Of a stretch of 64,000 nt of DNA, positions 17,643-39,491 are shown one piece after another (the first letter of the stretch is position 1; each line of letters opens with the position of its first letter). The position numbers and the translations under genes are program-made. Below the pieces are notes generated by a model. That model ran no database searches. It was not told where the DNA came from and worked only from the letters and a program-made list of their open reading frames with translations. The stretch lies in contig OY848930.1 of NCBI GenBank assembly GCA_963693285.1, positions 5,270,001-5,334,000 on the forward strand, in the 5' to 3' direction. The DNA is from Xestospongia muta (Eukaryota > Porifera > Demospongiae > Haplosclerida > Petrosiidae).

Positions 17643-18533
17643 ATGTCTGCTTTTTTATTTGTCTCTCTTTTCTCTTCCATTTTAGTTGCTGTACAGTCTA
17701 TTGGCTGTTACAAAGAAGTGCCAGGACCATGGCCTAGTGTAGTATTAACCAAGATTCCTCATCAATACATCAATACTGCTGATCTACCAGCTAACTTTGA
17801 TTGGCGTAATGTTAACAATACATGTTATGTCTCTCCTCCTACTAACCAGTTAATACCCTATCCATGTGGATCATGCTGGGCTCATGCAGCCACAGGTGCT
17901 CTAACAGATCGATTTATTATTGCTACCAAAGGACAAGTAGCAATGCCACATTTATCTATGCAAGCACTGTTAGATTGTGGTGAAGGGACCAGCATTGGTG
18001 ATCTTGGTAGCTGTAGTGGAGGGAGTGATATTAAAGCATATGAATTCATTCATAAATATGGCATTACCGATGTTACCTGTTCTCCTTATATGGGTGTCAC
18101 CTCTACTAATTGGGCTGAGGGGGTAACTTGTCCAGAACGGATGTGTAAGCAATGTGATATACACGGATCATGTCGTCTTATTAATGGGACAAAATATTAC
18201 ATAATGGAGTTTGGTTCAATCCTAGGTGAAGATGAAATGATGACAGAGATATATGCTCGAGGCCCTATAGCTTGTCATGTGTATGCTCATAGTCCAGCTT
18301 TCCTGGATTATACCAATGGGATAATATCAGACCCTACTGACTATGGCTATACCACTCATGTTGTCGTGGTAACTGGATGGGGTGTGGATGCTAAAGGAAC
18401 TAAATATTGGATAGGACGTAACTCATTTGGTACCTCATGGGGAGAAGTGGGTTGGTTTAAACTGGAACGAGGAAAGAATACATTGGATATAGAACGTCAT
18501 AATTGTACATGGGCAGTGCCCAAGCTGATGTGA
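17643..18533 (+). CDS. CTSZ: Cathepsin Z/X-like papain-family cysteine protease, intronless
   Basis: A 296-residue secreted or lysosomal C1A protease. Residues 1-20 form a signal peptide (FLFVSLFSSILVAVQS), followed by a short propeptide and a mature start near LPANFDWRNV. Catalytic residues are visible: the oxyanion Gln69 in NQLIPYPCGSCWAH, nucleophile Cys78, His239 in YTTHVVVVTGWG and Asn260 in WIGRNSFGTSWGE. The insertion before CGSCW and the overall length (human CTSZ is 303 residues) point to cathepsin Z rather than L or B. The family mini-loop His-Ile-Pro, which in human cathepsin Z anchors the substrate C-terminus for carboxypeptidase action, reads Leu70-Ile-Pro here, so that activity may be altered. 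The gene has no introns in an intron-rich setting, which suggests an old retrocopy. It shares a short divergent promoter with the dynein gene. Confidence 0.9.
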   Translation: MSAFLFVSLFSSILVAVQSIGCYKEVPGPWPSVVLTKIPHQYINTADLPANFDWRNVNNTCYVSPPTNQLIPYPCGSCWAHAATGALTDRFIIATKGQVAMPHLSMQALLDCGEGTSIGDLGSCSGGSDIKAYEFIHKYGITDVTCSPYMGVTSTNWAEGVTCPERMCKQCDIHGSCRLINGTKYYIMEFGSILGEDEMMTEIYARGPIACHVYAHSPAFLDYTNGIISDPTDYGYTTHVVVVTGWGVDAKGTKYWIGRNSFGTSWGEVGWFKLERGKNTLDIERHNCTWAVPKLM

Positions 18534-26133: not shown

Positions 26134-27619
26134 ATGACAAGTACTGCAACAGCAGCGGGTTTAGTAATATTGGACCATTTCTTGAGAAGATGGATATTGC
26201 CATTGTTACTGTTAGCCGGTGAGATATGATAGTCACATGATATCACGTGATTTCCTTCTTATTTTCTAGCATCTCTGCTCAGATATAACCTTTTTTCATT
26301 TGCATATCTCATTTTTTTCCTGGTAAGTGTGATAGTAGCAGGACCACGATTAAAAAGCCAAAGAGGTCAGTTTATAACCATTATTTAATAATTAGCCACA
26401 CCCCTCTAATTAGTAATCTGTATTGTGTTCCTGTTTATTGTGGTGGTTGCCTCTGCACTCTTTACATTAACACAACTTGGTTTTCAGATCGCCATAGCAA
26501 CTGGTTTCAAATTAGAGCCATGTAAGTTGCATTATAATGATAATATGATGTCACTATGATATCATATAGGTGAAACACTGGAAGTTGTTTTGCGCCAAAT
26601 TGGATTAATTCTATTTACAGTCCCACCAGTGGACATTGTTCGACATATTGTACCTGATGTTGTTATTCTTCTAGTGTCCAGTGTTACTGTGGGTGTGGCC
26701 ATCAAAATAGCGTTATTACATGGAGAAGATGACACCATACCCTCTGAAAGACAGACCCCCGAACAACAGAATATTGAAGTAAAGGAGACTCCACTTAGTG
26801 AAGCAACATCCTTATCTCGTTCTCATCAATCATCTCATCAGGAGTTTAATAAACTACCATCGTGGGTGTTACTAGTTTACGATGTCTTAATATTTTTCTT
26901 GTTGTTCCTCTCTGGGGTAGCTGTACCATCACTAACTAGTTTGTTTTATTTCTCTTTCTTTCTTCTCTTGAGTTTGTTATGGAGCTTACATCTTCACCGT
27001 TTGTTTGTGATAAGATGGTTGAGATGTCTTACTTTGATATATAGCGGTCTCCATATCCTAATACTGTATCTTTATCAGTTACAATCTGCGCAACTTTTAA
27101 TACCAATATCACCTACTGACACTACTAATAGTCTTTTAGCTAGGTATGGATAGATGGATGGACAAAAGATGGATAGATGGATGGATGGATATATAGATGG
27201 ATGGATGGATAGATGGATGGATATATAGATGGATGGATGGATAGATGGATGGATATATAGATGGCAGACTGATGGATGGATGAATGAATTATTTTATTTT
27301 AAAATGGATGTATTTTTATAGATTGTTTGGTCTCACTCCAATTATTGAAACTACTTGTAGTCGTCCAACTGAACTACTTGTGTGGGAAGCCACACCTACT
27401 ACTTTTCTCATTAACCCTTGGTCTCTTATTGGTCTCTACTGGATACTGGGAATAGATTGTCAACTCTGGCTTACCACACCAGTAAGTGTATCTGTCTGTC
27501 TGTCATCTGACTGACTGTCTGTCTGACTAATCGTCTGTTTGACTTGTCTGACTGACTGTCTGTCTGTCTGACTGTCTGTTTGTCTGTCTGTCTAACTGAC
27601 TGTTTGTCTGTCTGACTGA

Positions 27620-27665
<46 letters not shown>

Positions 27666-30413
27666 GACTGACTGACTGACTGTTTTATTTATTGGTTCTT
27701 TTTAAAATTTATTTTGAAAAGAACAAGATGTATAATAACTAGTATGTGATAATAAAAATAGAATATTGTCCTAGCATGAAATAAAGAGAGATACATTGCA
27801 GCATATTATTAGCCTATAGTAAGTTAATGATTTTAGTTCGATTTATTGAGCATTTATTTCTGAGCAAGTTTCTTCAGGTCATCTCTAACATATAAATCCA
27901 TAAATTCTCCAAGTGTATTGAAGTTCCAGTATTGTTGTCCAGCGGTAATGTCCCAACAGTGAGTCTCGTCTTCTCTGGGGTCTAGCATCTCTCCAGAACT
28001 CTCTCCAGAACCTGCTCCATTGTCATCATCAGGAGAAGCTTGTTTGTGTATTATCTGATCAAGAAGATCTTTGAGTTTTGACATGAAGCTTATTGAGTCC
28101 TTCATATCGATACAAATCCTCATATCAGAACCGACCTTTTCCTTCAAGTCGCTACACTCTGCATCATAAACTAATTTGGTATAATTATAAAAATCATTTA
28201 ACCAGATACGATCTTGTTTAAGGAGAGTGAGAGCAGTATCATTGTTGTTGGGATAACGTGGTTCAATGAAACAAGTGAAAGTGACATTAACTATTGTCTT
28301 GTTAAGTCGTGAGGCAATATCAAAAGCATTTTGAGCAGTATATACTGCTTGTTGTATCGCTTGTGTAATGATGTTCATGGGAGCTGTTTTAATAGTAGGT
28401 TTGGCGGATGTTGGTATAGGACTAGTGGAGACAAATGATCCCAGGAAGAGGATGAGTAAAAGAGTGCTGTAATAGAGTGCCATCTTGATTGGAGTTTCTT
28501 GACTTGAATTTTTTTAGAATATGTTGTATCTTTTGTGAATGCTTCATAGCTAGCTTGATTCTTTATATACAATTTCTTCTCTGCCATTCTGATCGGAACT
28601 GAACTTCTGTCTGCCGTTGGGAGTTAGATGGGGACAGTCTGTACCAGGTAAAGGTCCTTGGGTTGGTTCCCTTTGTACCAGGTGCTGATGACGATAAAGA
28701 GATTCATCGTGTTCATTTTTTCTAAGTCTTGCATCTGGTGTCACTTGTTCAGCACTAGGCACTGACTAACTTTGAACTAGACACTCCCCTTTTTTAAATA
28801 GACTCTAAATCCTAATATCAATAGATGATGTAATCTATGAATATTTAGTAAGGTTATAATGAGACAATAAACATATGAATATTGTTATGTTTAATATAGA
28901 GTCTATGAATATTGTTAATAAGTTATAAATATTATTAAATTCATCTACTTCTCCTAATTGTTTGTTAAGTTACTAACAAAATGATGTCAACTATTTATAA
29001 TGTACCAGTCTGTATCTTGACATCCATTAGTTCTTGATTATCGTAACAATAATTGACTTGAACATTAGTCAATTTTATTGATATATTTATAATTCTATTG
29101 TTTCCTAATAGAAATCATTATGGATTAAATACAAGACGTACTTTCTCCCTGCTCTCAAGTATATGGGTGATGTGGGTGGGGCTAAGTTAGAACCATCATC
29201 ATCACCAGTACGATATGGATCAGTAGAAGCCACACCCACTGCTATCATTGAAACATCTCTATCTGATGAGGTTCATAATGCATCCATTACTCATTATGTG
29301 TCCATTACTTACTGTACTATTCATCTATTTGTCTACCATTCATCCATTAGGGACCACAAGAAGATGGTGCAAGTGATATCGAAGATGAGAGGAAGAGTGC
29401 ATTAAGGAAATATGGACGTGAGAAGTTGATCCATTTATGGAAAATGTTCTCAATCCGTGTCATTGAAATATGGTCCATTATAATGAGAGTGAACTATATC
29501 TTTGCTATTATAGCTATGATGGTAAGTAATGGATATATATTGTGTATTAATGGATGTATAAATGGATATTAATGGATATATGTTTGAGTTAATGGATATA
29601 TAACTGGACATATTTTAATAGAGTATTATTTCATTATTAGGTATGGAGTGTCCTCTATCCATCGTGGTTAGCATTAGTCCTCCTCCTGTGGGCGTCGACT
29701 ATATGGTTAATCCCTCGTATTAGTCCTAAACAATCCTTGTATTGGACATCACCTATTTTATTGTTATATTCTCTAAGTCTCGTGTTACTGCAATATACTC
29801 ACAGTCTTAATCTGACTAATAGTGAACTGAGTTGGAGCTTAGCATTTGGTCCTGAGTGTGTTAGTAAATCTTCTCCCCACTTAGAGAACTGTCGAAGTGC
29901 TGTTGTGGGTATCAAAGTAAGGCAATATGTGTCCATTTTTTATTGATCTGTCCATTTTAGAGTCTTTTAATGTTGGTGTTTTGTGCTTCTGTTCGAGAGT
30001 TTATCAAAGACCTCAAAGCAATTAGAAGTAGGCAGAGTGATGGGCGTGACCAAACAGATCAAGGTGATGACAATAGAGATCATCCTTTATTAGGAGTAGT
30101 TGAGGAAGGTATTGAAAGTCATATGACTGCCATGTGATGAACAGTCTAATAGTCATGTGATTTATCATGTATGTCATGTGATATTTTATTCTCTCAATTA
30201 GCTACTGATACAAATGCAGAGACTTCCAATACTACAACATTGTTGTATATGCAGTTAAAATTATTGTTGACTAGTTACTGGATTCTTGTGGTAGTACTGG
30301 CATTTGTGTTAGTGATCTTAGCAGGAGAACCATCAATTTTAAAAAGCGTTTATTTGGTCTTCTTTTTTGTGTTTTTACTTTTATATCAGGTATGTGACTA
30401 GACAATTTGATAT

Positions 30414-30453
<40 letters not shown>

Positions 30454-33400
30454 ATTTCCAAAAGCTGGTGGCAATATCTTAATTATCCATTATGGATGAT
30501 GTTAGTGTGTTATGCTACTCTTCATCTCATTTTAGTATACACATTTCCATTTCCAACTATTAACAATCTTTGGATGAAAGCATATGAATCTTCAGATATT
30601 ATGAGTTCAAGAAATATATCATCAACTGATCTGTATGTAGGATGGATGGATGGATGGATGGATGGATGGATGGATTGATGGATGGATGGATGGACCGACG
30701 GACAGACAAACAAATGATGTCTGATACAACATCATGTCAACTTATAATGTTTTTTTTTCTTTTCAGATTTGAAAGTATTGGTTTTCTTGAATACAATGAC
30801 CTTGACACAGGACCACGATCAATTTTTGCTGTCCTTGCTCCTCTTGCCCTCTTTATTGCTGTGTTAGCATTACAATTACGCTACTTTACTCCTAAACCAC
30901 ACCCACAAACACAGGAATCAGAACTAAGCATCGGACATGTTCTTACCAGATTTGCTAATGCTGTCTCTATTGTTGATATTGATTTCAAACAATTAGAAGA
31001 TGAGATTGAACAAAAACGAGATCAGAAAACAGTTAGTGCTATCAATGAGGATAGTCTAGTGATTAAAGGAAAGAGTAAAACCCTAACATTGTATCGGGTA
31101 ATTATGTATTTGTTGGTCAAAGTGCGTCAGTTTTTAGTTGGTCTGTGGCATTTATTATGGAGGTTTTTTGAGCTACATACTCACAAACTTGCAATCATTT
31201 GTCTCTTTGTTGTCTGTATCTATGAAATTAGCATCGCTTACTTTCCAGTAATTCTGTTTATATTAATTGCCACACCCCTTCCTATTTTTAATTGGATTGG
31301 ATATCCTGTTATGACAGTCTATCTTGGTATGTTATCGCTGGGAAAGTTTCTATTTCAGTTGCCGTTAATAAAAGAATTTATGTTTGGAAATGAATGCGAT
31401 GTAAGTATTAATGGATAGATAGATAAGATAAATTGATGGATGGATGGATGAATGGACTGGTGAATGGATGTATGGTGAGTGTGATGGATGAATGGGTGGA
31501 TAAATGGATGGACAACAAATCAATCATTCTATATGTACATATAAACAATATATTTCTTTATAGAATACTACAATAGAGGATGTTAGTAATCTCAAAGGTC
31601 AAATATTTCATTATTCCTTTTCTCCTTCAAACAATGACAGTAGTTGGATAGGGTTAAATAAAGCCAGTCATAATCCACATGGTTATATTGCTGTGAGTAT
31701 AACCCTATAATAATTACAATTAATTAATGGAATACTTTAGGGACCTATGTTAGTGTCATTGTTATTTTGTTTATGGTACTCTGCTAAAAGACATCAGGTA
31801 TTTATTTAATAACTTTTAATAACTTGTAATTATAACTGTTAATAATAGGCATATTATTATCGGAGTAAAGGTATTGTTATTGAAAGATGGGACGTGGGAA
31901 GTCTATTTCTAAGTACGGACTTGGAACGAGTCCATACATCATGGATTGAGGCTGGAAAATTTCTGATAAATCATGCATTTGAAAAGTATGGAGTTGAAGT
32001 AAGTCATTAGTTGTTGTGGTATCTGATATCTCTCTCTCTCTCACTCACTAGATATGTTGGATCATGCAGGCTATACTGATAGCTGCTCGTATTGATGTAT
32101 ATGGTATATTATATGGTGTTCTTTTGCTGGCTATGTTGGTCATACCTCGAAGATTTCTAGTATATTCTTGGATTGGTTTTGTTGTTGTTCATGGCACCTT
32201 GTTAGTAGTACAATATCTCATGTTATTAGGGTTACCTCCTAGTGTATTGTGTGAAAAAGGTATGAATAAATGGATAGTGGATGGATGGATAGATGGATGG
32301 TTAAATGGATGAGTTAATAGATGTATGAATGGACATATTAATAATCAAATAATATCAACAAAGGGACATACCCTTTTACAGAACTATGAGTTAGGGGAAA
32401 TCCCATTTTCATAAGTCACTTACCTTAATTTTCCCTTGGAAAGTCCCTGGTACTTATTATTACTTATAGATTATCCCTGGGACATAACATTTCCTATTTC
32501 AAGTTATGGTATTCAATTGGAACGTTGGTTGTACATACCACATGAAGGAGCTGATATTTTGAATAAATGGCTACTTTATGGTAAGTCATGAATATCATTA
32601 ACTCTATGAATATTAATATTATTTTTTCTTAGCTGATCTTGTTGGTTATATTTTATTGTGTTTACAATTGAAATATTTTTTTCGTAATCCACTCAAATTT
32701 AAAAGGGAGGACGATTCTGTGTTACCCAATATGTATGATGCCAACTACTGGATTGATTACATCAAGGTATGTGGGTGGAGTTTTAATATGGTAACATAAG
32801 TTTCTAATTATAGATTATAATTTTTCAATATTTCTTTTGGTTTGCATTATTCATCATATTTGTAACTGGTGCCATTCGATTGAGTATATTTGGACTGATC
32901 TATCTTGTACTTTGTTTCTGGTTCTTATATCGTGGATCCAACCTCTTAACAGATCCTCGTAAAACACGAATTAAGTGGTCAGAAAATAATAAATGGATAG
33001 ATAAATGGACAGATGGATGGATAAATAGATAGATGAATGGACAGATGGATGGATAAATAGATAGATGAAGGACAGATGGATGGATAAATAGATAGATGAA
33101 TGGACAGACATATTCTCTTTATAATAGGTGGACAATTCTACGATATATAACATTTACAATTTTATTTCTGCGTATTGTAATTCAAGTAAGTATATATTAT
33201 TCCTATAGATTTGTATGTATTCATTTTATGTGTCCATATTGTTATTATCTGTCCATTAGATAATGGGTTGTATATTTGAAGAACAAGTTAAAGGTGCTAC
33301 TAACTGTTTCTTTATTGGTCTATTCAATATCCGTTGTGCTAGATCAAGTTATTATGGTAAGAATGGACAAATGGATATAAGAAATGGATGCATACACTGT

Positions 33401-36400
33401 CTAATGACATATTTTATATTCAGGTGTTCTTCCATCTTTGGAATGTGATAATGGGAGTGAGACCAACACTGGTTTGTGGTTTGATGTCTTCAGTTTTGCT
33501 GTGATCACTGTCCAAATACTCCTCATGGACACTGAATATGCTGATCAAGTACAAAATAGAATACTTGAAAAAGAAAACGATGCTGTTAAGTAAGAGCTCT
33601 TTATCCATCCACACACACATCCTTTATATCTCTACTAGTTTTGCTGAGATTATGAGGGAAGTATTAAGAGATAAACAACTTGCTATGCAACAAGAACATG
33701 ATAACAATTTAAAGGAATTAGAGAAGAGGTATATAGTTCATAATATGTATGTATTGTTAATGATATGTTTAGAGCTGAACAACTTGAGGTTACTAAAGGA
33801 AAGATAGCACATTTATTACATGCAGGAAGTAAGTCTATTTCCAGTCAAAGCAGTTATGATTTCCAGTTTTTTTCCAGCTCGTATTCCTCCAGAGTACATT
33901 AGTCAATCTCCTGTTAAAACTCGAGTTAGTACCAGTATATCTCCTCCGCCCACACATTTAGATGAGGACACGCCCACTGAAGGAGAGGATCATTTTGTTG
34001 TTGTGGATGATGAGGCTGCTAAAATTGAAACTGAAACTAGCAAGTTAAAAAAGGCGTGCCAATTCCTGTGGGGGGTGTGGCTTGAAGTAGTGGACTATAT
34101 AATACAGTGGTTTGAAGTTAACAGTGCTAATTATGTTGAGGTTGTCAAACGTCTAAAGAGAGCTCGATCTCAATCTGGTAAGGATGTGTTGTTAACAGAT
34201 ACAATGCCTCCTCTAGAAGAAAAAGCCACACCTACATCTGATCACGTGAGCTCAGATGAGATACATTCAGATGAACAGATCAAAGAAGAAATAGTTCGCA
34301 AAAAGGAGAAAAGATCGAGTCATCATCTCACGGGAGCTAGTGCCCACTTTGATCAAACAAGTGATAATTTAATAACAGCATTACAGGTGCTACCCTCGGA
34401 TCTTGAGGAAGAGAAAGCTAATGAAGTGGGCTCAGTTCTTTACAGAGTCACTTCTCAATATTCTGAACGTCCAAAGCGTTTTCTGTACGCCTTGTATTAT
34501 TGGATGTTGTCACATTTTGAATATGTTGTCTTCTTTTTTGTTATACTTACAATTTTGAGGACAGGCAGTCTCATTTCTTTTGTCTATGCTGGAATAGTGT
34601 TTCTTTGGGGACTTCTCTCTATTCCTTGGCCATCAAAACGATTTTGGTTGGCTCTTCTTTTTTTTACAATGCTTGTGTTGATCTCAAAATATGTCTATTT
34701 GTTCTTCCTGGTCACTCATTTTGGTCATGATACTCAATATCAGTCTTTGCAGCCTGGAATACAAACAGGTGGTTTATTGTCATGGATGTTTGGAATACAG
34801 TCTGAGAATAGCTATTTTGTTAATGCTATCTTTAATTTATTACTTTTAATGTCTATTATATTTCATCGAGGTTTATTAAAGGTATGTACTGTCCATTTTA
34901 TATCCATCTATCCATTCATCAGTCTATTCATCCATTCATTCATACTTCCATCCATCCATTTAGCAACATGGTTTGTGGCAGAGTTCTAGTTCTGTTAGAA
35001 CAGAAGGAGTTAGTATCTTGTAAGTTGACTGACTTAACAAATTTAACCTTTGAACTTTGACCTTTAGTAAGGACAGTTTCAAGAGTATCTACCATTTTTT
35101 CAAGACACTTATTAATCCTGGCATTGTTGTGGGCAATAAAGATTATTATACAATGATTCTATCATGTGACGTCCTGTGCTTTATAACTATTGTATTGGGC
35201 TATTCTCAATTTACAGTAAGCTATAGGACCCTGCAATTATATCAAATAATTGTAGGGTCTGATGCTTAATATTAGGACCCTGCAATTATAACAATTAATT
35301 ATAGGGTCTGATGCTTGTAGTGTTAGGTTCTGGTAATATTGATAATATTATTATAGGTAACTGCTGGTGGTAATGATTTTGGTAATGCTGCTACGTTCAT
35401 ACAGACAAATAATGTTCCTCTGACATTTGTCATCATGTTGTTTTTACAGTTCATTTCAATGCTTGTAGACAGGTAGGTGGACTATAAATTGATATATATT
35501 GTGTTAGTACAGATGTATAATTTGTAAAATGGATATATATTATGTTATTATAGATGCATAATTTGTAAAATGGATGTATATTATGTTATTATGGACACTT
35601 ATTCCACACAGAGCAATATATCTTCGTCATTCGATACGAGCTAAACTGATATTCTACATTATCTTGTTACTTCTATGGCATATAGTACTCCTAATAATTC
35701 TACCAATTGTTACAACAAAGTATGTTATGATAACAATAGTGTATTGTTCTATTGTCTTATTCCAGAGCTTTTGTTGATAATCCTGCTGCACAGTTAATCT
35801 ATTTTTTTAAAAGCGGTTACTTTATTCTCTCAGCTCTTCAAATGATTTCAGGCTATCCTGTTCGATTATTGAAATATTTTGTAGGTTCTAGTTACTCTAC
35901 TGTAGTGGGTCTCATCTTTATGGGGTAAGTAGGTGGAGTCAATGAAGCTGTTGCCATGAGAACTTTCATTTTAGTTATCGTTTGATTCCCCTTATCCCTG
36001 AGTTACGTGAAGTAATGGATTGGGTCTTCACTAATACATCATTAACATTGATTAACTGGTTAAGAGTACAAGAAATTTGGGCACAACTTTATCAAATTAA
36101 AGTTCGAAGAGCCAGAGAAAAGGTCTGTATTAGTCCTCCATATAAATATCTATTCATCCATTGAGCTATCTGTTTATCCATATAAATATCTATTCATCCA
36201 TTGAGCTATCTGTTTATCCATATAAATATCTATTCATCCATTGAGCTATCTGTTTATCCATATAAATATCTATTCATCCATTGAGCTATCTGTTTATCCA
36301 TATAAATATCATTCATCCATTGAGCTATCTATTTATCCATATAAATATCTATTCATCCATTAGCTATCTATTTATCCATTCATTGCATTCTACATTTTTA

Positions 36401-37962
36401 GAGTTTTCCTAGAGATCTTGGCGATGAACAGAGCTTTGTTATTAAAGGTTTAATGGGCGGGGCATTGTTAGTTCTCCTTGTCTTATTAATATGGGGTCCT
36501 CTCCTAGCAATCAGTCTTGTTAATCAAGTTAGTTTACCCAACCCTCCTATAAGTGCCTCTGTACAACTACATTTAGAGGGATATCAGGTCAGACCCCTTT
36601 AATTAGCACACTAATAATGACACTTATTAAATATTTTATAGCTGCTAGAGATAAGAGCTCAAAGTTCTTTAATTAACCCACTGACCTCAGAACAATATCA
36701 AGAGCTACAGAATAAAATAACACAGACTTCGGTTAATTAATTAATTAATTTATTTATTATTATGAATGGCCTTATATAGATTAATCGTGATTTCAGAAAT
36801 CTGTTTCCACAAGATAATTTTAGACGTATAACATTTCCTGGAAATTCATCATTATTGTGGACAGTCAGTACAACCTCAGCTAACCAATTGTCCTCATTGT
36901 TGAAAAATATACTTTCTAATAATCTACTAAATGCAAATTTGATTTTCTCATGGAGTCTAACAAGGTATCTGTTCATTAAACATTGAAGTCTGTTTATCTG
37001 TTTTAGATCTCCGAGTACTGGTCTGGTGTCGTCTACTGTCACTGGTAGTGTTACTAAAAAACTTAACCAATCAAATTCATCTCTGATATTACAACAATTT
37101 ATTGATAATATTAATGGGAACAATTCTGTACCTATGTAAGTTTAATGTACCAAGAATAATGTAGACTTTGTTTTACATATTATATTTACTAGCATTCTCA
37201 ATAAACTGTATCCAGTATTTGTATTAGCACCAGCTAATGAACAATCTACCGAATATAAACAACTTTCAAGTTTGTATTAGTACATGTTATTTATTCATCC
37301 ATTTAGTTATTTATTCATCCATTTAGTCATCTATTCATCCATTCTCTTATCCATCTGTCCATTTATCTATCCATCCATCTATTTCTTTATCATATATATC
37401 CATTCATTTCAGATCTAATTGGTAACGGTTCTGCAAATTGTACTGCTCAGTTGAATCAGACAATACTAGATAATGTTACTATTAATCAATGGTGGACAAT
37501 ATTGCAAATATCGTCAATATTTGCTCAAAAAGAGGACAACGATCTTGAAATCATTGTCTACAGTGAACGTATAGCTCCGCCCATCTTTAGTTATATAACC
37601 AGCTTTGGGTAAGTGTTGTTGTAGATATAGCTTGGAGCATAATACATGTGCTTTATATGCAATTATAAAGGGGTGTGGTTCATTTTTTCTTTTTATTTAG
37701 TATTATTGGTCTCTATGTGTCAGTGGTATTGGTCATCAGTCGATTTGTACGTGGTTATATTAACTCTCTACCATTGAATCTACTTGTTGAGGAGATACCT
37801 TATCCTGACCCACTCTTAAGACTATGTGATGATATATTTACTGTCAGAGAAGTTAAAAATTTTGTGATGGAAGAAATATTGGTTGGTCGATTGATTTATA
37901 TATTTAGATCACCACAAGAATTGCTGCAATTAACAGAAAGACCAAAAGCTAAATTTGATTGA
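26134..37962 (+). CDS. PIEZO: PIEZO mechanosensitive cation channel
   Basis: Large trimeric plasma-membrane channel opened by membrane tension. The start [20 protein letters not shown] is at 26134. Many exons encode paired hydrophobic helices of the blade (for example [17 protein letters not shown] near 29500-29660). The family landmark [12 protein letters not shown] lies near 34610. The 35760-36120 exons carry ISGYPVRLL and [17 protein letters not shown], followed by the outer helix [20 protein letters not shown], an extracellular cap domain (36550-37610), the pore helix [20 protein letters not shown] and the C-terminal region [10 protein letters not shown] ... [11 protein letters not shown]. 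All align in order with vertebrate PIEZO1/2. I estimate 2,200-2,400 residues. One intron (27482-29111) is far longer than the rest and hosts an antisense gene. Many other introns are filled with GGAT, CTGT and TC repeats. Confidence 0.93.
27147..27290. repeat. (GGAT)n-rich tract in a PIEZO intron
   Basis: Imperfect GGATGGATAGATGGATATAT repeats fill the intron between two PIEZO exons. Confidence 0.8.
27494..27690. repeat. (CTGT)n / (CTGA)n microsatellite in the large PIEZO intron
   Basis: About 200 bp of CTGT, CTGA and TTGT tetranucleotides start just inside the 5' end of the intron that holds the nested gene. Confidence 0.85.
27854..28483 (-). CDS. Small secreted four-helix protein nested in a PIEZO intron
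   Basis: A single-exon, 209-residue ORF antisense to PIEZO. I do not recognise it with confidence. Residues 1-20 form a signal peptide ([20 protein letters not shown]), then a Pro/Thr-rich stretch. Four amphipathic segments follow: about 36-68, 85-116, 119-148 and 178-207. There are four cysteines (71, 110, 124, 176), enough for two disulfides, and N-glycosylation sequons at Asn61, Asn66, Asn81 and Asn100. An acidic linker with Ser-Gly pairs ([14 protein letters not shown], about 152-165) resembles a glycosaminoglycan attachment site. The last helix, [16 protein letters not shown] followed by DDLKKL, is reminiscent of helix D of CNTF/IL-6-type cytokines (inference only). The stop TAA is followed within 10 bases by AATAAA, and a TATA-like TATTTAAA lies about 310 bp upstream of the ATG, so it looks like an intact gene rather than a chance ORF. 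Confidence 0.75.
   Translation of the reverse strand: MALYYSTLLLILFLGSFVSTSPIPTSAKPTIKTAPMNIITQAIQQAVYTAQNAFDIASRLNKTIVNVTFTCFIEPRYPNNNDTALTLLKQDRIWLNDFYNYTKLVYDAECSDLKEKVGSDMRICIDMKDSISFMSKLKDLLDQIIHKQASPDDDNGAGSGESSGEMLDPREDETHCWDITAGQQYWNFNTLGEFMDLYVRDDLKKLAQK
28484..28805 (-). promoter_or_regulatory. Putative promoter and 5' UTR of the nested secreted gene
   Basis: Upstream of the ATG at 28483 lies about 310 bp of higher GC content than the surrounding intron. At its far end (28789-28801) is a TATA-like TATTTAAAAAAG on the minus strand. No upstream coding exon is convincing; the longest minus frame here opens with GTG and ends before the gene. Confidence 0.3.
30417..30452. repeat. (TC)n tract forming the polypyrimidine tract of a PIEZO intron
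   Basis: About 17 TC units end directly at CAG|ATTTCC, so the microsatellite is the acceptor's pyrimidine tract. Confidence 0.8.
30641..30702. repeat. (GGAT)n microsatellite in a PIEZO intron
   Basis: About twelve GGAT units with few interruptions, just after the exon that ends near 30635. Confidence 0.85.
32990..33118. repeat. About 32-bp minisatellite in a PIEZO intron
   Basis: Three to four copies of GATGGATAAATAGATAGATG followed by AATGGACA fill the intron before the acceptor near 33128. Confidence 0.8.
35226..35315. repeat. Two tandem fold-back units in a PIEZO intron
   Basis: Two adjacent units of about 45 bp each read AGGACCCTGCAATTATA ... ATAATTGTAGGGTCT-GATGCTT. Inside each unit the two arms are inverted repeats (GACCCTGCAATTAT against ATAATTGTAGGGTC, one mismatch), so each can form a hairpin. 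Confidence 0.75.
36136..36380. repeat. 40-bp minisatellite (about 6 copies) in a PIEZO intron
   Basis: The unit TCCATATAAATATCTATTCA followed by TCCATTGAGCTATCTGTTTA is repeated about six times. The first four copies are identical; the last two differ by small changes. Confidence 0.9.
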
Positions 37963-38156
37963 ACAAACTAAATAAACCACTTTTCAATTCATAAAAATCC
38001 CATTTGTTGTTATATAGTTGTCATAATGTTTTCAGTCCATGTATTTATAAATAATTAAAATAGCACATGTGGCCCCACCCTTTTTCAGAGGAGGTGTGGT
38101 TTGCCCACGTGTTTTGTTCAAGACAAAGCAATAATAGAGGTATATACCTGTATGCT

Positions 38157-39491
38157 ATGTTGAATTTATATATCCCTATATTATGTATAGTGATTGTGAT
38201 GATATTGAGAGTTACAAAGAGAAGGTTAGTATATTTGGGTACTGGTGTCTTTGCAGGACTTCTAATAGTCAACAGAATGATATTACCTTCAACGTCAAGG
38301 TGTATTTCAGCTACTTGTCATACTGGTCCCGCCTATCAGTTATTGAGACGTAATGAGATGAGGATCGAAGTCGATCATCCGTTAATATCTTCAGTTCACA
38401 TTAATTATTTGCCCTCTAATCATCCTAATGAAGACAGATTTTCTATTGGAACAATCAAAGAACATTGTACTAGTTTATTTGCAGTTATTGATGGACATAA
38501 AACTGACGATTGTTCAGATCATCTCAAGGACACATTGTTACCATACGTTGTGCATTCTCTGAAGGAAGGGGGTGTGGTTAAAAGCAACATTGAAATGGTT
38601 GATGTACATCGCCATGCTGATACAATTATAGCATCCACTGATACCTGTGACACCACTTCACTTGATAATGTAAAAGTCGTTGATAACCTATTACATCAAG
38701 GTTTTATGTCGCTTGATAAAAACATCAGTGAAGAGGCTTTGAAATGCTTTCGTTTAGTTAATAAAGGACATTCTATTAAAGAAAATAATCGTCTTAAGAT
38801 AACTATGAGGGCTATTGCTGGTGCTTGTGCTTTGGTTGCTATGGTAACAGATAAGATGGTATACATTGCCAATACTGGTGATTGTCGAGTTATATTGGGT
38901 GTTAAAGAAAAGGGGGTGTGGTCTGCCACACCTCTGAGTCGAGATCAAAATGCACATAATAAAGATGAAGTGATTCGTATAATTTCAGCTCATCCTGGCG
39001 AGGAAAAAACTGTAATTTCTATGGGACGAATATTGGGTTCTTTAATGCCTTTTAGATCTTTTGGTGATGTTGAGTTAAAATGGCCTCAAGAACAATTGGA
39101 TCTCTTTGGCTCGTATCTGGCAAATTATTTCACTCCGCCCTATCTTACAGCAGACCCTGTAGTCACCAATAAAATAGTGACTTCGTCTGATAAATTTATG
39201 GTTCTAGCAACAGATGGTCTGTGGGAAAAACTTAGCAATGAGAAAGTTGTCGAGACTGTTAGTAATATAGGTGTCTCTAGTCGTAAAACTGGACTGATGG
39301 GTTTTTTTAGTCGACAACAACAAGAGGAGTGTTGTTCATATGAAAACTCAGCTACAACATTGTTGTGGGAAGCACTAGGTGGTACAGAGGATAGTGTTGA
39401 CAACATGTTAAGAATTCCACCACGTTTTAGTCGATTACATCGTGATGACATCACTGTTTTAGTGGTTCATTTTAAAGATAAAGATACATAG
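38157..39491 (+). CDS. PDP1: Pyruvate dehydrogenase phosphatase-like PP2C (PPM family), intronless
   Basis: Metal-dependent Ser/Thr phosphatase resembling the PDP catalytic subunit, which reactivates pyruvate dehydrogenase in the mitochondrial matrix. Visible PPM motifs are NEDRFS, AVIDGH, IANTGDCRVILGV, LSRDQNAHN, LMPFRSFGDV, TPPYLTADP, LATDGLWE and HRDDITVLVVHF. Their order matches PDP1/2, and the LMPFR-FGD, HNAxN-type and TPPYLTA segments are PDP-specific. The Gly after the DGH motif is replaced (DGHKTDDC). The N-terminus MLNLYIPILCIVIVMILRVT and a second hydrophobic run near residue 25 suggest membrane association or an unusual targeting sequence. The frame stays open up to an ATG at 38067 (30 more residues). 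I prefer 38157 because a CACGTG box at 38106-38111, which lies upstream of starts in neighbouring genes, would otherwise fall in coding sequence. No introns. Confidence 0.85.
   Translation: MLNLYIPILCIVIVMILRVTKRRLVYLGTGVFAGLLIVNRMILPSTSRCISATCHTGPAYQLLRRNEMRIEVDHPLISSVHINYLPSNHPNEDRFSIGTIKEHCTSLFAVIDGHKTDDCSDHLKDTLLPYVVHSLKEGGVVKSNIEMVDVHRHADTIIASTDTCDTTSLDNVKVVDNLLHQGFMSLDKNISEEALKCFRLVNKGHSIKENNRLKITMRAIAGACALVAMVTDKMVYIANTGDCRVILGVKEKGVWSATPLSRDQNAHNKDEVIRIISAHPGEEKTVISMGRILGSLMPFRSFGDVELKWPQEQLDLFGSYLANYFTPPYLTADPVVTNKIVTSSDKFMVLATDGLWEKLSNEKVVETVSNIGVSSRKTGLMGFFSRQQQEECCSYENSATTLLWEALGGTEDSVDNMLRIPPRFSRLHRDDITVLVVHFKDKDT

What the first reader, a model, noticed from the sequence alone, without database searches (positions are those of the whole stretch)
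27854..28483. Secreted four-helix, cytokine-like gene nested antisense in a PIEZO intron
Seen: an intact single-exon gene with signal peptide, four N-glycosylation sequons, four cysteines, an acidic Ser-Gly linker (possible glycosaminoglycan attachment), and AATAAA directly after the stop. Four amphipathic helices are evident, and the last, WNFNTLGEFMDLYVRDDL, follows the W-x-x-x-x-L-x-E-L/F-x-x-W/L-x-V-R spacing of helix D in CNTF-type cytokines. Known: class I helical cytokines diverge so fast that sequence searches miss them, and they are generally described from bilaterians. Inference: this may be a four-helix-bundle ligand in an early-branching animal.
Basis: partly seen in the sequence, partly recalled or inferred. 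Interest (0 to 1): 0.8.

Follow-up and report, generated by a model that had tools for sequence, protein, structure and literature searches.

The report
Orphan secreted helical protein in sponge
A small gene hidden backwards inside an intron of a sponge's PIEZO gene really exists and is conserved in close relatives; it probably makes a secreted bundle of helices that could act as a messenger protein, but that it is a true cytokine is not shown.

Summary
The gene is real. An intact 209-codon single-exon ORF lies antisense in a 1,630-bp GT-AG intron of PIEZO (27482-29111). None of 2,000 Markov-simulated introns gave an ORF as long. Three full-length homologues (83-97% identity) keep all four mature-chain cysteines, three shared sequons, two Ser-Gly sites and a C-terminal block invariant at 35 of 36 positions. 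No cytokine family or PDB match by sequence; one copy found in the genome.

Best reading: a clade-restricted secreted four-helix ligand-like glycoprotein, receptor unknown.

The parts
27854..28483 (-). Single-exon ORF, 209 aa, stop included: secreted four-helix-like orphan protein
   Evidence: three full-length homologues
28421..28483 (-). Putative signal peptide, residues 1-21 (cleavage site inferred)
   Evidence: hydrophobic LLLILFLG core read by eye; 14 of 21 invariant
28301..28375 (-). Helix A, residues 37-61 (model 38-61 / 38-60)
   Evidence: hydrophobic moment above 99.7% of shuffles
28244..28300 (-). AB connection, residues 62-80, with C71 and sequon N66; 17 of 19 invariant
28142..28243 (-). 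Helix B, residues 81-114 (model 81-110 / 81-114), with sequons N81 and N100 and C110
28040..28129 (-). Helix C, residues 119-148 (model 119-148 / 119-147), with C124
27965..28039 (-). Acidic linker, residues 149-173, two Ser-Gly sites (159, 163), possible glycosaminoglycan attachment; length varies but two SG kept in 4 of 4
27857..27964 (-). Most conserved block, residues 174-209, with C176, W177, W186 and helix D (191-208 / 191-207)
   Evidence: 35 of 36 positions invariant
28562..28569 (-). TATATAAA, candidate TATA box 86 nt before the ATG
   Evidence: sequence; function inferred
27842..27858 (-). Two AATAAA poly(A) signals, first bases at 27858 (overlaps the stop) and 27847
   Evidence: sequence; function inferred
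27482..29111 (+). Host PIEZO intron (GT at 27482, AG ending 29111)
   Evidence: read by eye; Piezo_TM1-24 matches before (profile 256-315, below cut-off) and after (408-468)
26560..37962 (+). PIEZO host gene, the part identified here (5' end not traced)
   Evidence: Pfam Piezo_TM1-24, THU_Piezo1, Piezo_cap

Best explanation
A clade-restricted gene, single as far as the search saw, for a secreted N-glycoprotein that folds as a helical bundle and works as an extracellular ligand. Shown: the ORF, its conservation, its cysteines, sequons and SG sites. Inferred: the signal peptide is removed; helices A, B and C pack with helix D; the long AB (about 19 residues) and CD (about 42) connections and short BC loop (4-8) allow an up-up-down-down bundle; C71-C176 would tie the AB loop to the start of helix D (the same idea as the AB-loop-to-helix-D disulfide of growth hormone/prolactin, recalled) and C110-C124 would close the BC turn; the acidic SG linker may carry a glycosaminoglycan that holds the ligand in the mesohyl; the invariant block 174-209 is the receptor-binding face. 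The receptor is unknown; with STAT present, many receptor-type and Src-type tyrosine kinases seen, and no class I receptor or JAK detected, a tyrosine-kinase receptor (as for SCF or CSF-1, recalled) is at least as likely as a gp130-like one. The case of true descent from class I cytokines with a JAK-coupled receptor is counted apart, under the rivals.
For: ORF beyond chance; full-length conservation in three homologues, C-terminal block 35/36 invariant against 96/127 in residues 22-148, Fisher p=0.003, the block being chosen after looking; four main helices in two models with long-short-long connections; Foldseek PDB lean to helical cytokines: 10 of the top 13 rows and 17 of 50 listed, 22 of 50 listed, several rows being the same protein and the chain identity of the IL-12/IL-27 rows being inferred; STAT in the genome; compact gene signals.
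Confidence: 0.43

Rival explanations
1. A lineage-specific secreted helical protein that is not a signal: a mesohyl/matrix, skeletal or defence protein whose bundle resembles cytokines only because simple helical bundles resemble each other.
For: Best VIA matches are generic bundles: mitofusin 9.2, synaptogyrin 7.9, single-chain ROP 7.8, iron-binding protein 8.0; no sequence relative found outside a close clade; acidic SG linker fits a matrix proteoglycan; no receptor found.
Against: Foldseek's listed rows lean to long-chain cytokines in both runs; the long-short-long loop pattern and near-invariant C-terminal helix are unlike a repetitive or structural protein.
Confidence: 0.38
2. A true class I helical cytokine by descent, signalling through a gp130/Domeless-like receptor, JAK and STAT in a sponge.
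For: As for the best explanation; helix-D motif in exact CNTF spacing, 1.25% of 400 shuffles score as well when position is fixed; IL-6 local z 1.47 and global z 2.46 (2.7% of shuffles), the best of ten such tests; STAT present; a published report of JAK and STAT in Porifera (PMC13203501, passages).
Against: Motif within chance when position is free (70% of shuffles score as well) and chosen after the fact; IL6Ra-bind and FERM_F1 no match, EpoR_lig-bind, Jak1_Phl and FERM_F2 none over cut-off; the 12 best JAK2-kinase matches, the only ones fetched of 140, look like Src-type or receptor kinases; published surveys see IL6R first in Mollusca and no CRLF3 in Porifera (passages); single exon, unlike most class I cytokine genes (recalled).
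Confidence: 0.14
3. An ORF of this length by chance, or a gene that is not expressed.
For: No RNA evidence could be tested; five upstream ATGs lie within 330 bases before the ORF.
Against: 0 of 2,000 simulated introns reach it; three full-length homologues with conserved cysteines.
Confidence: 0.03

Closest known systems
IL-6/IL-11/CNTF/LIF long-chain class I cytokines
   Same: Predicted four helices of 17-34 residues, long AB and CD connections, short BC loop, W shortly before helix D; W-x4-L-x-E-[LF]-x4-V-R shared with CNTF; frequent Foldseek rows
   Different: No sequence match; low-confidence fold; no FxxK site III motif (recalled) in helix D; single exon; receptor and JAK not found
Prolactin / growth hormone / placental lactogen
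   Same: Prolactin is the first Foldseek row of run 1 (E 0.12, prob 0.92, TM 0.33/0.37); possible AB-loop-to-helix-D disulfide C71-C176 (recalled analogy)
   Different: Sequence comparison at noise level (PRL z 0.98, GH z -0.35 local); the other cysteines differ (recalled); no EpoR_lig-bind match over cut-off
SCF / CSF-1 type helical ligands of receptor tyrosine kinases (recalled)
   Same: Secreted glycosylated four-helix ligands, CSF-1 with a proteoglycan form; many tyrosine-kinase matches in this genome
   Different: Not among the 50 listed rows of any fold search; different cysteines; no class III receptor kinase tested

Membership tests
Class I helical cytokines | Secreted, with signal peptide | tested here: inconclusive
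   Hydrophobic N-terminus followed by a sequon-rich chain, read by eye and conserved; no predictor run
Class I helical cytokines | Four alpha-helices | tested here: inconclusive
   Helices 38-61, 81-110, 119-148, 191-208 in run 1; 38-60, 81-114, 119-147, 191-207 plus a short extra helix and two strands in run 2; pLDDT 50.5 and 55.1
Class I helical cytokines | Up-up-down-down topology with two long crossover loops | tested here: inconclusive
Class I helical cytokines | Sequence match to a described cytokine family | tested here: not met
   No Pfam or PDB match, and only unrelated weak rows in NCBIfam and in the profile and helix-D searches; but 8 of 10 pairs of known members have z of 2.22 or less in the same pairwise test, so this is weak against it
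Class I helical cytokines | Class I receptor (cytokine-receptor homology region, WSXWS) in the same animal | tested here: inconclusive
   PF09240 0 matches (control rang nowhere), PF09067 7 matches none over cut-off, WSXWS consensus peptide 8 matches; 7 W[ST]xW[ST] strings in 5 fetched loci, none at a matched stretch, all chance-like by eye; exon-split six-frame search
Class I helical cytokines | JAK in the same animal | tested here: inconclusive
   PF17887, PF18379, PF18377 none over cut-off, controls rang nowhere; of 140 JAK2-kinase matches the 12 best were inspected by eye: 8 with an SH2-like stretch, 4 with a membrane-type stretch; two tested against PDB, both nearest to Src/Fyn
Class I helical cytokines | STAT in the same animal | tested here: met
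   PF01017 over cut-off (36.4 against 27.5 bits) at G000:C15:3089776-3089991, the match running past one stop at an exon end; E. coli and T. maritima rang below cut-off in the control; STAT-like N-terminal exon nearby by eye
SCF/CSF-1 type ligands | Class III receptor tyrosine kinase partner | not tested
   Only general tyrosine kinase matches seen

The most novel reading that the evidence does not exclude
A class I-like four-helix cytokine, related by descent to the IL-6/prolactin superfamily, exists in a sponge, so that the ligand, and by implication an undescribed receptor, predate the split of sponges from other animals.
Probability: 0.14. Interest if true: 0.85.

Novelty: new variant of a known kind. 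Interest (0 to 1): 0.45.

Why it matters
Published surveys, of which I saw passages, place JAK and STAT in sponges but the first IL6R-type receptor in molluscs, IL6 itself only in vertebrates (PMC13203501) and CRLF3 absent from sponges (PMC6797617). A sponge helical ligand would give that orphan pathway a candidate input and make the question of where helical cytokines come from testable with one small recombinant protein. If it proves unrelated, it is still an undescribed secreted family whose C-terminal block is under strong constraint.

Tried and rejected
Chance ORF: rejected. Paralogues in the genome: only one other match, E 0.75, 25% identity over residues 18-107 with two stops inside, judged chance. 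Viral relatives: none confirmed in viral contigs (8 stretches matched a pattern); BFVD fold rows are scattered over unrelated viral proteins, the best with E 0.091, which shows how little E-values near 0.1 mean here. RNA families in the window: none at gathering score. More homologues by profile: the same three proteins among the 7,996 candidates scored (a capped list). The helix-D motif as proof: rejected (and phmmer of residues 177-209 against PDB gave two unrelated rows). JAK presence: not shown. Cytokine families not listed in a VIA table are not counted against. Paper searches that listed no report of a sponge helical cytokine, seen as listings; subscription papers and preprints are not in that library. 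PMC6723221 (passages) held nothing on a sponge cytokine. Nesting in an intron as a point of interest: rejected, since PMC10282587 (passages) counts 3,358 nested genes in Amphimedon, 2,432 in Aphrocallistes and 5,032 in Sycon (but 83 in Oopsacas and 0 in Ephydatia, which it lays to annotation method).

The codon-level test of selection (dN/dS) could not be done: only the protein letters of the homologues are at hand.

Full report
The observation. The ORF at 27854-28483 on the minus strand is intact, 209 codons, single exon. In 2,000 sequences simulated from the dinucleotide content of the intron the longest ATG ORF averaged 59 codons and never exceeded 138. The ATG has a good context (ATCAAGATGG); a TATATAAA stands at 28569-28562; AATAAA overlaps the stop at 27858 and recurs at 27847. 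If transcription starts about 30 nt after that box, near 28538, the start lies just past the last upstream ATG (28547); this is inference.

The surroundings. The plus strand carries PIEZO: Pfam Piezo_TM1-24 at 26560-27150 and 29641-29943, THU_Piezo1 at 33808-34986, Piezo_cap at 37669-37959, and below-cut-off Piezo_TM1-24 matches for 27284-27511 and 30343-30675. The exon stops before GTAAGT at 27482 and the next begins after TAATAG ending at 29111 (read by eye), so the gene lies wholly inside a 1,630-bp intron, antisense. This is ordinary in sponges: a sponge genome paper counts thousands of nested genes in Amphimedon, Aphrocallistes and Sycon, though few or none in two other annotations (PMC10282587, passages).

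Conservation. Two searches of 5.8 billion proteins gave the same three homologues, at 97, 83 and 85% BLASTP identity over the full length. All four sequences keep the four mature-chain cysteines (P0003 has a fifth in its signal peptide), W94, W177 and W186, three of the four sequons and two SG sites; sequon 61 is missing in P0004, and P0003 and P0004 each have an extra one in the linker. The block 174-209 is invariant at 35 of 36 positions against 96 of 127 for residues 22-148 (Fisher p=0.003; the block was chosen after looking); the acidic linker 149-173 is invariant at 13 of 25 and varies in length. The downstream PP2C gene has homologues at 98 and 91% and then at 54% or less; 397 proteins had E up to 1e-20, of which 120 were listed; the one name with an organism reads '[Amph', cut off. 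So the database holds more distant relatives of a neighbouring gene, and the present gene is either restricted to a narrow clade or changes too fast to be seen outside it; the search needs shared 5-residue words, so the second is possible.

No known family. No Pfam match, only weak unrelated NCBIfam rows (best E 0.036, VirB8, in two of four members), no PDB sequence match (profile best E 0.56, acyl carrier protein). One copy found in the 158-Mb genome.

The motif. W-x4-L-x-E-[LF]-x4-V-R does occur with the spacing of CNTF helix D, five identities in 15. In 400 shuffles of the mature chain against the whole of CNTF 100% reach five identities and 70% reach the score; limited to the C-terminal 30 residues against CNTF helix D, 8% and 1.25% do. 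Chosen after the fact among many cytokines, it proves nothing. Whole-sequence comparison with PRL, GH, CNTF, IL-6 and LIF gives local z from -0.35 to 1.47 and global z from -1.19 to 2.46, the last for IL-6 (2.7% of 300 shuffles, the best of ten tests); of 10 pairs of the known members only PRL-GH (24.8) and CNTF-LIF (4.3) stand out, so sequence cannot decide.

The pathway. STAT is present (PF01017, 36.4 bits over a cut-off of 27.5; exon with STAT N-terminal sequence by eye). IL6Ra-bind gave no match, EpoR_lig-bind seven below cut-off, the one read lying in a fibronectin-type protein by eye, a WSXWS peptide eight weak matches without WSXWS at the matched place. JAK domains gave none over cut-off, and of 140 matches to the JAK2 kinase domain the 12 best, the only ones fetched, look like Src-type or receptor kinases by eye (two tested against PDB, both nearest to Src/Fyn). 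These searches see exons one at a time, and no control genome known to carry these genes was searched (those that rang at all were E. coli, T. maritima and M. jannaschii, below cut-off), so they do not show absence. Published surveys report JAK and STAT in Porifera, IL6R from Mollusca on and IL6 only in vertebrates (PMC13203501, passages) and no CRLF3 in Porifera (PMC6797617, passages).

Conclusion. The gene is real and its product most likely a secreted, disulfide-bonded, glycosylated helical protein (secretion, disulfides and glycosylation inferred from sequence). That it acts as a ligand without shown class I descent is my best single reading (0.43); that it is a class I cytokine by descent is possible (0.14) and unproven; a non-signalling secreted helical protein is nearly as likely as the first (0.38). 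I do not file it as a member of the class I cytokines.

Noticed in passing
G000:C13, about 5114001-5223000 (-), loci L004, L033-L036 (outside the window): An open frame reported as 41,553 aa. All five sampled stretches, 3.0-3.1 kb each over 109 kb, are open on the minus strand and, by arithmetic on their coordinates done by hand, in one and the same frame; the protein is made of diverged repeats of roughly 100 residues (by eye) with no Pfam match (1,000 aa tested). A 49,014-aa single-exon protein is published for the sponge Aphrocallistes vastus (PMC10282587, passage), so it has a precedent.
   Followed up: partly
G000:C8:6532061-6584472 and G000:C6:1180282-1275034 (outside the window): Clusters of tyrosine-kinase genes with the kinase domain in one open frame: Src-like SH2-kinase genes on C8 and receptor-type kinases on C6 (types by eye for the fetched ones, one of them tested against PDB).
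   Followed up: partly
G000:C5:3382734-3563237 (outside the window): Five weak EpoR_lig-bind matches, all to profile positions 9-46 and below cut-off, clustered within about 180 kb; the one read (L008) lies in a fibronectin-type protein (by eye).
   Followed up: partly
window 17643-18533 (+): Single-ORF papain-family cysteine protease (Pfam Peptidase_C1, E 6.1e-46).
   Followed up: no
window 38067-39491 (+): Single-ORF PP2C-type phosphatase just downstream of PIEZO; the named relatives in the listing are called pyruvate dehydrogenase phosphatase.
   Followed up: partly
window 27500-27680: Long runs of CAGA/CAGT and CTGT-type short repeats between the gene's 3' end and the upstream PIEZO exon.
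   Followed up: no
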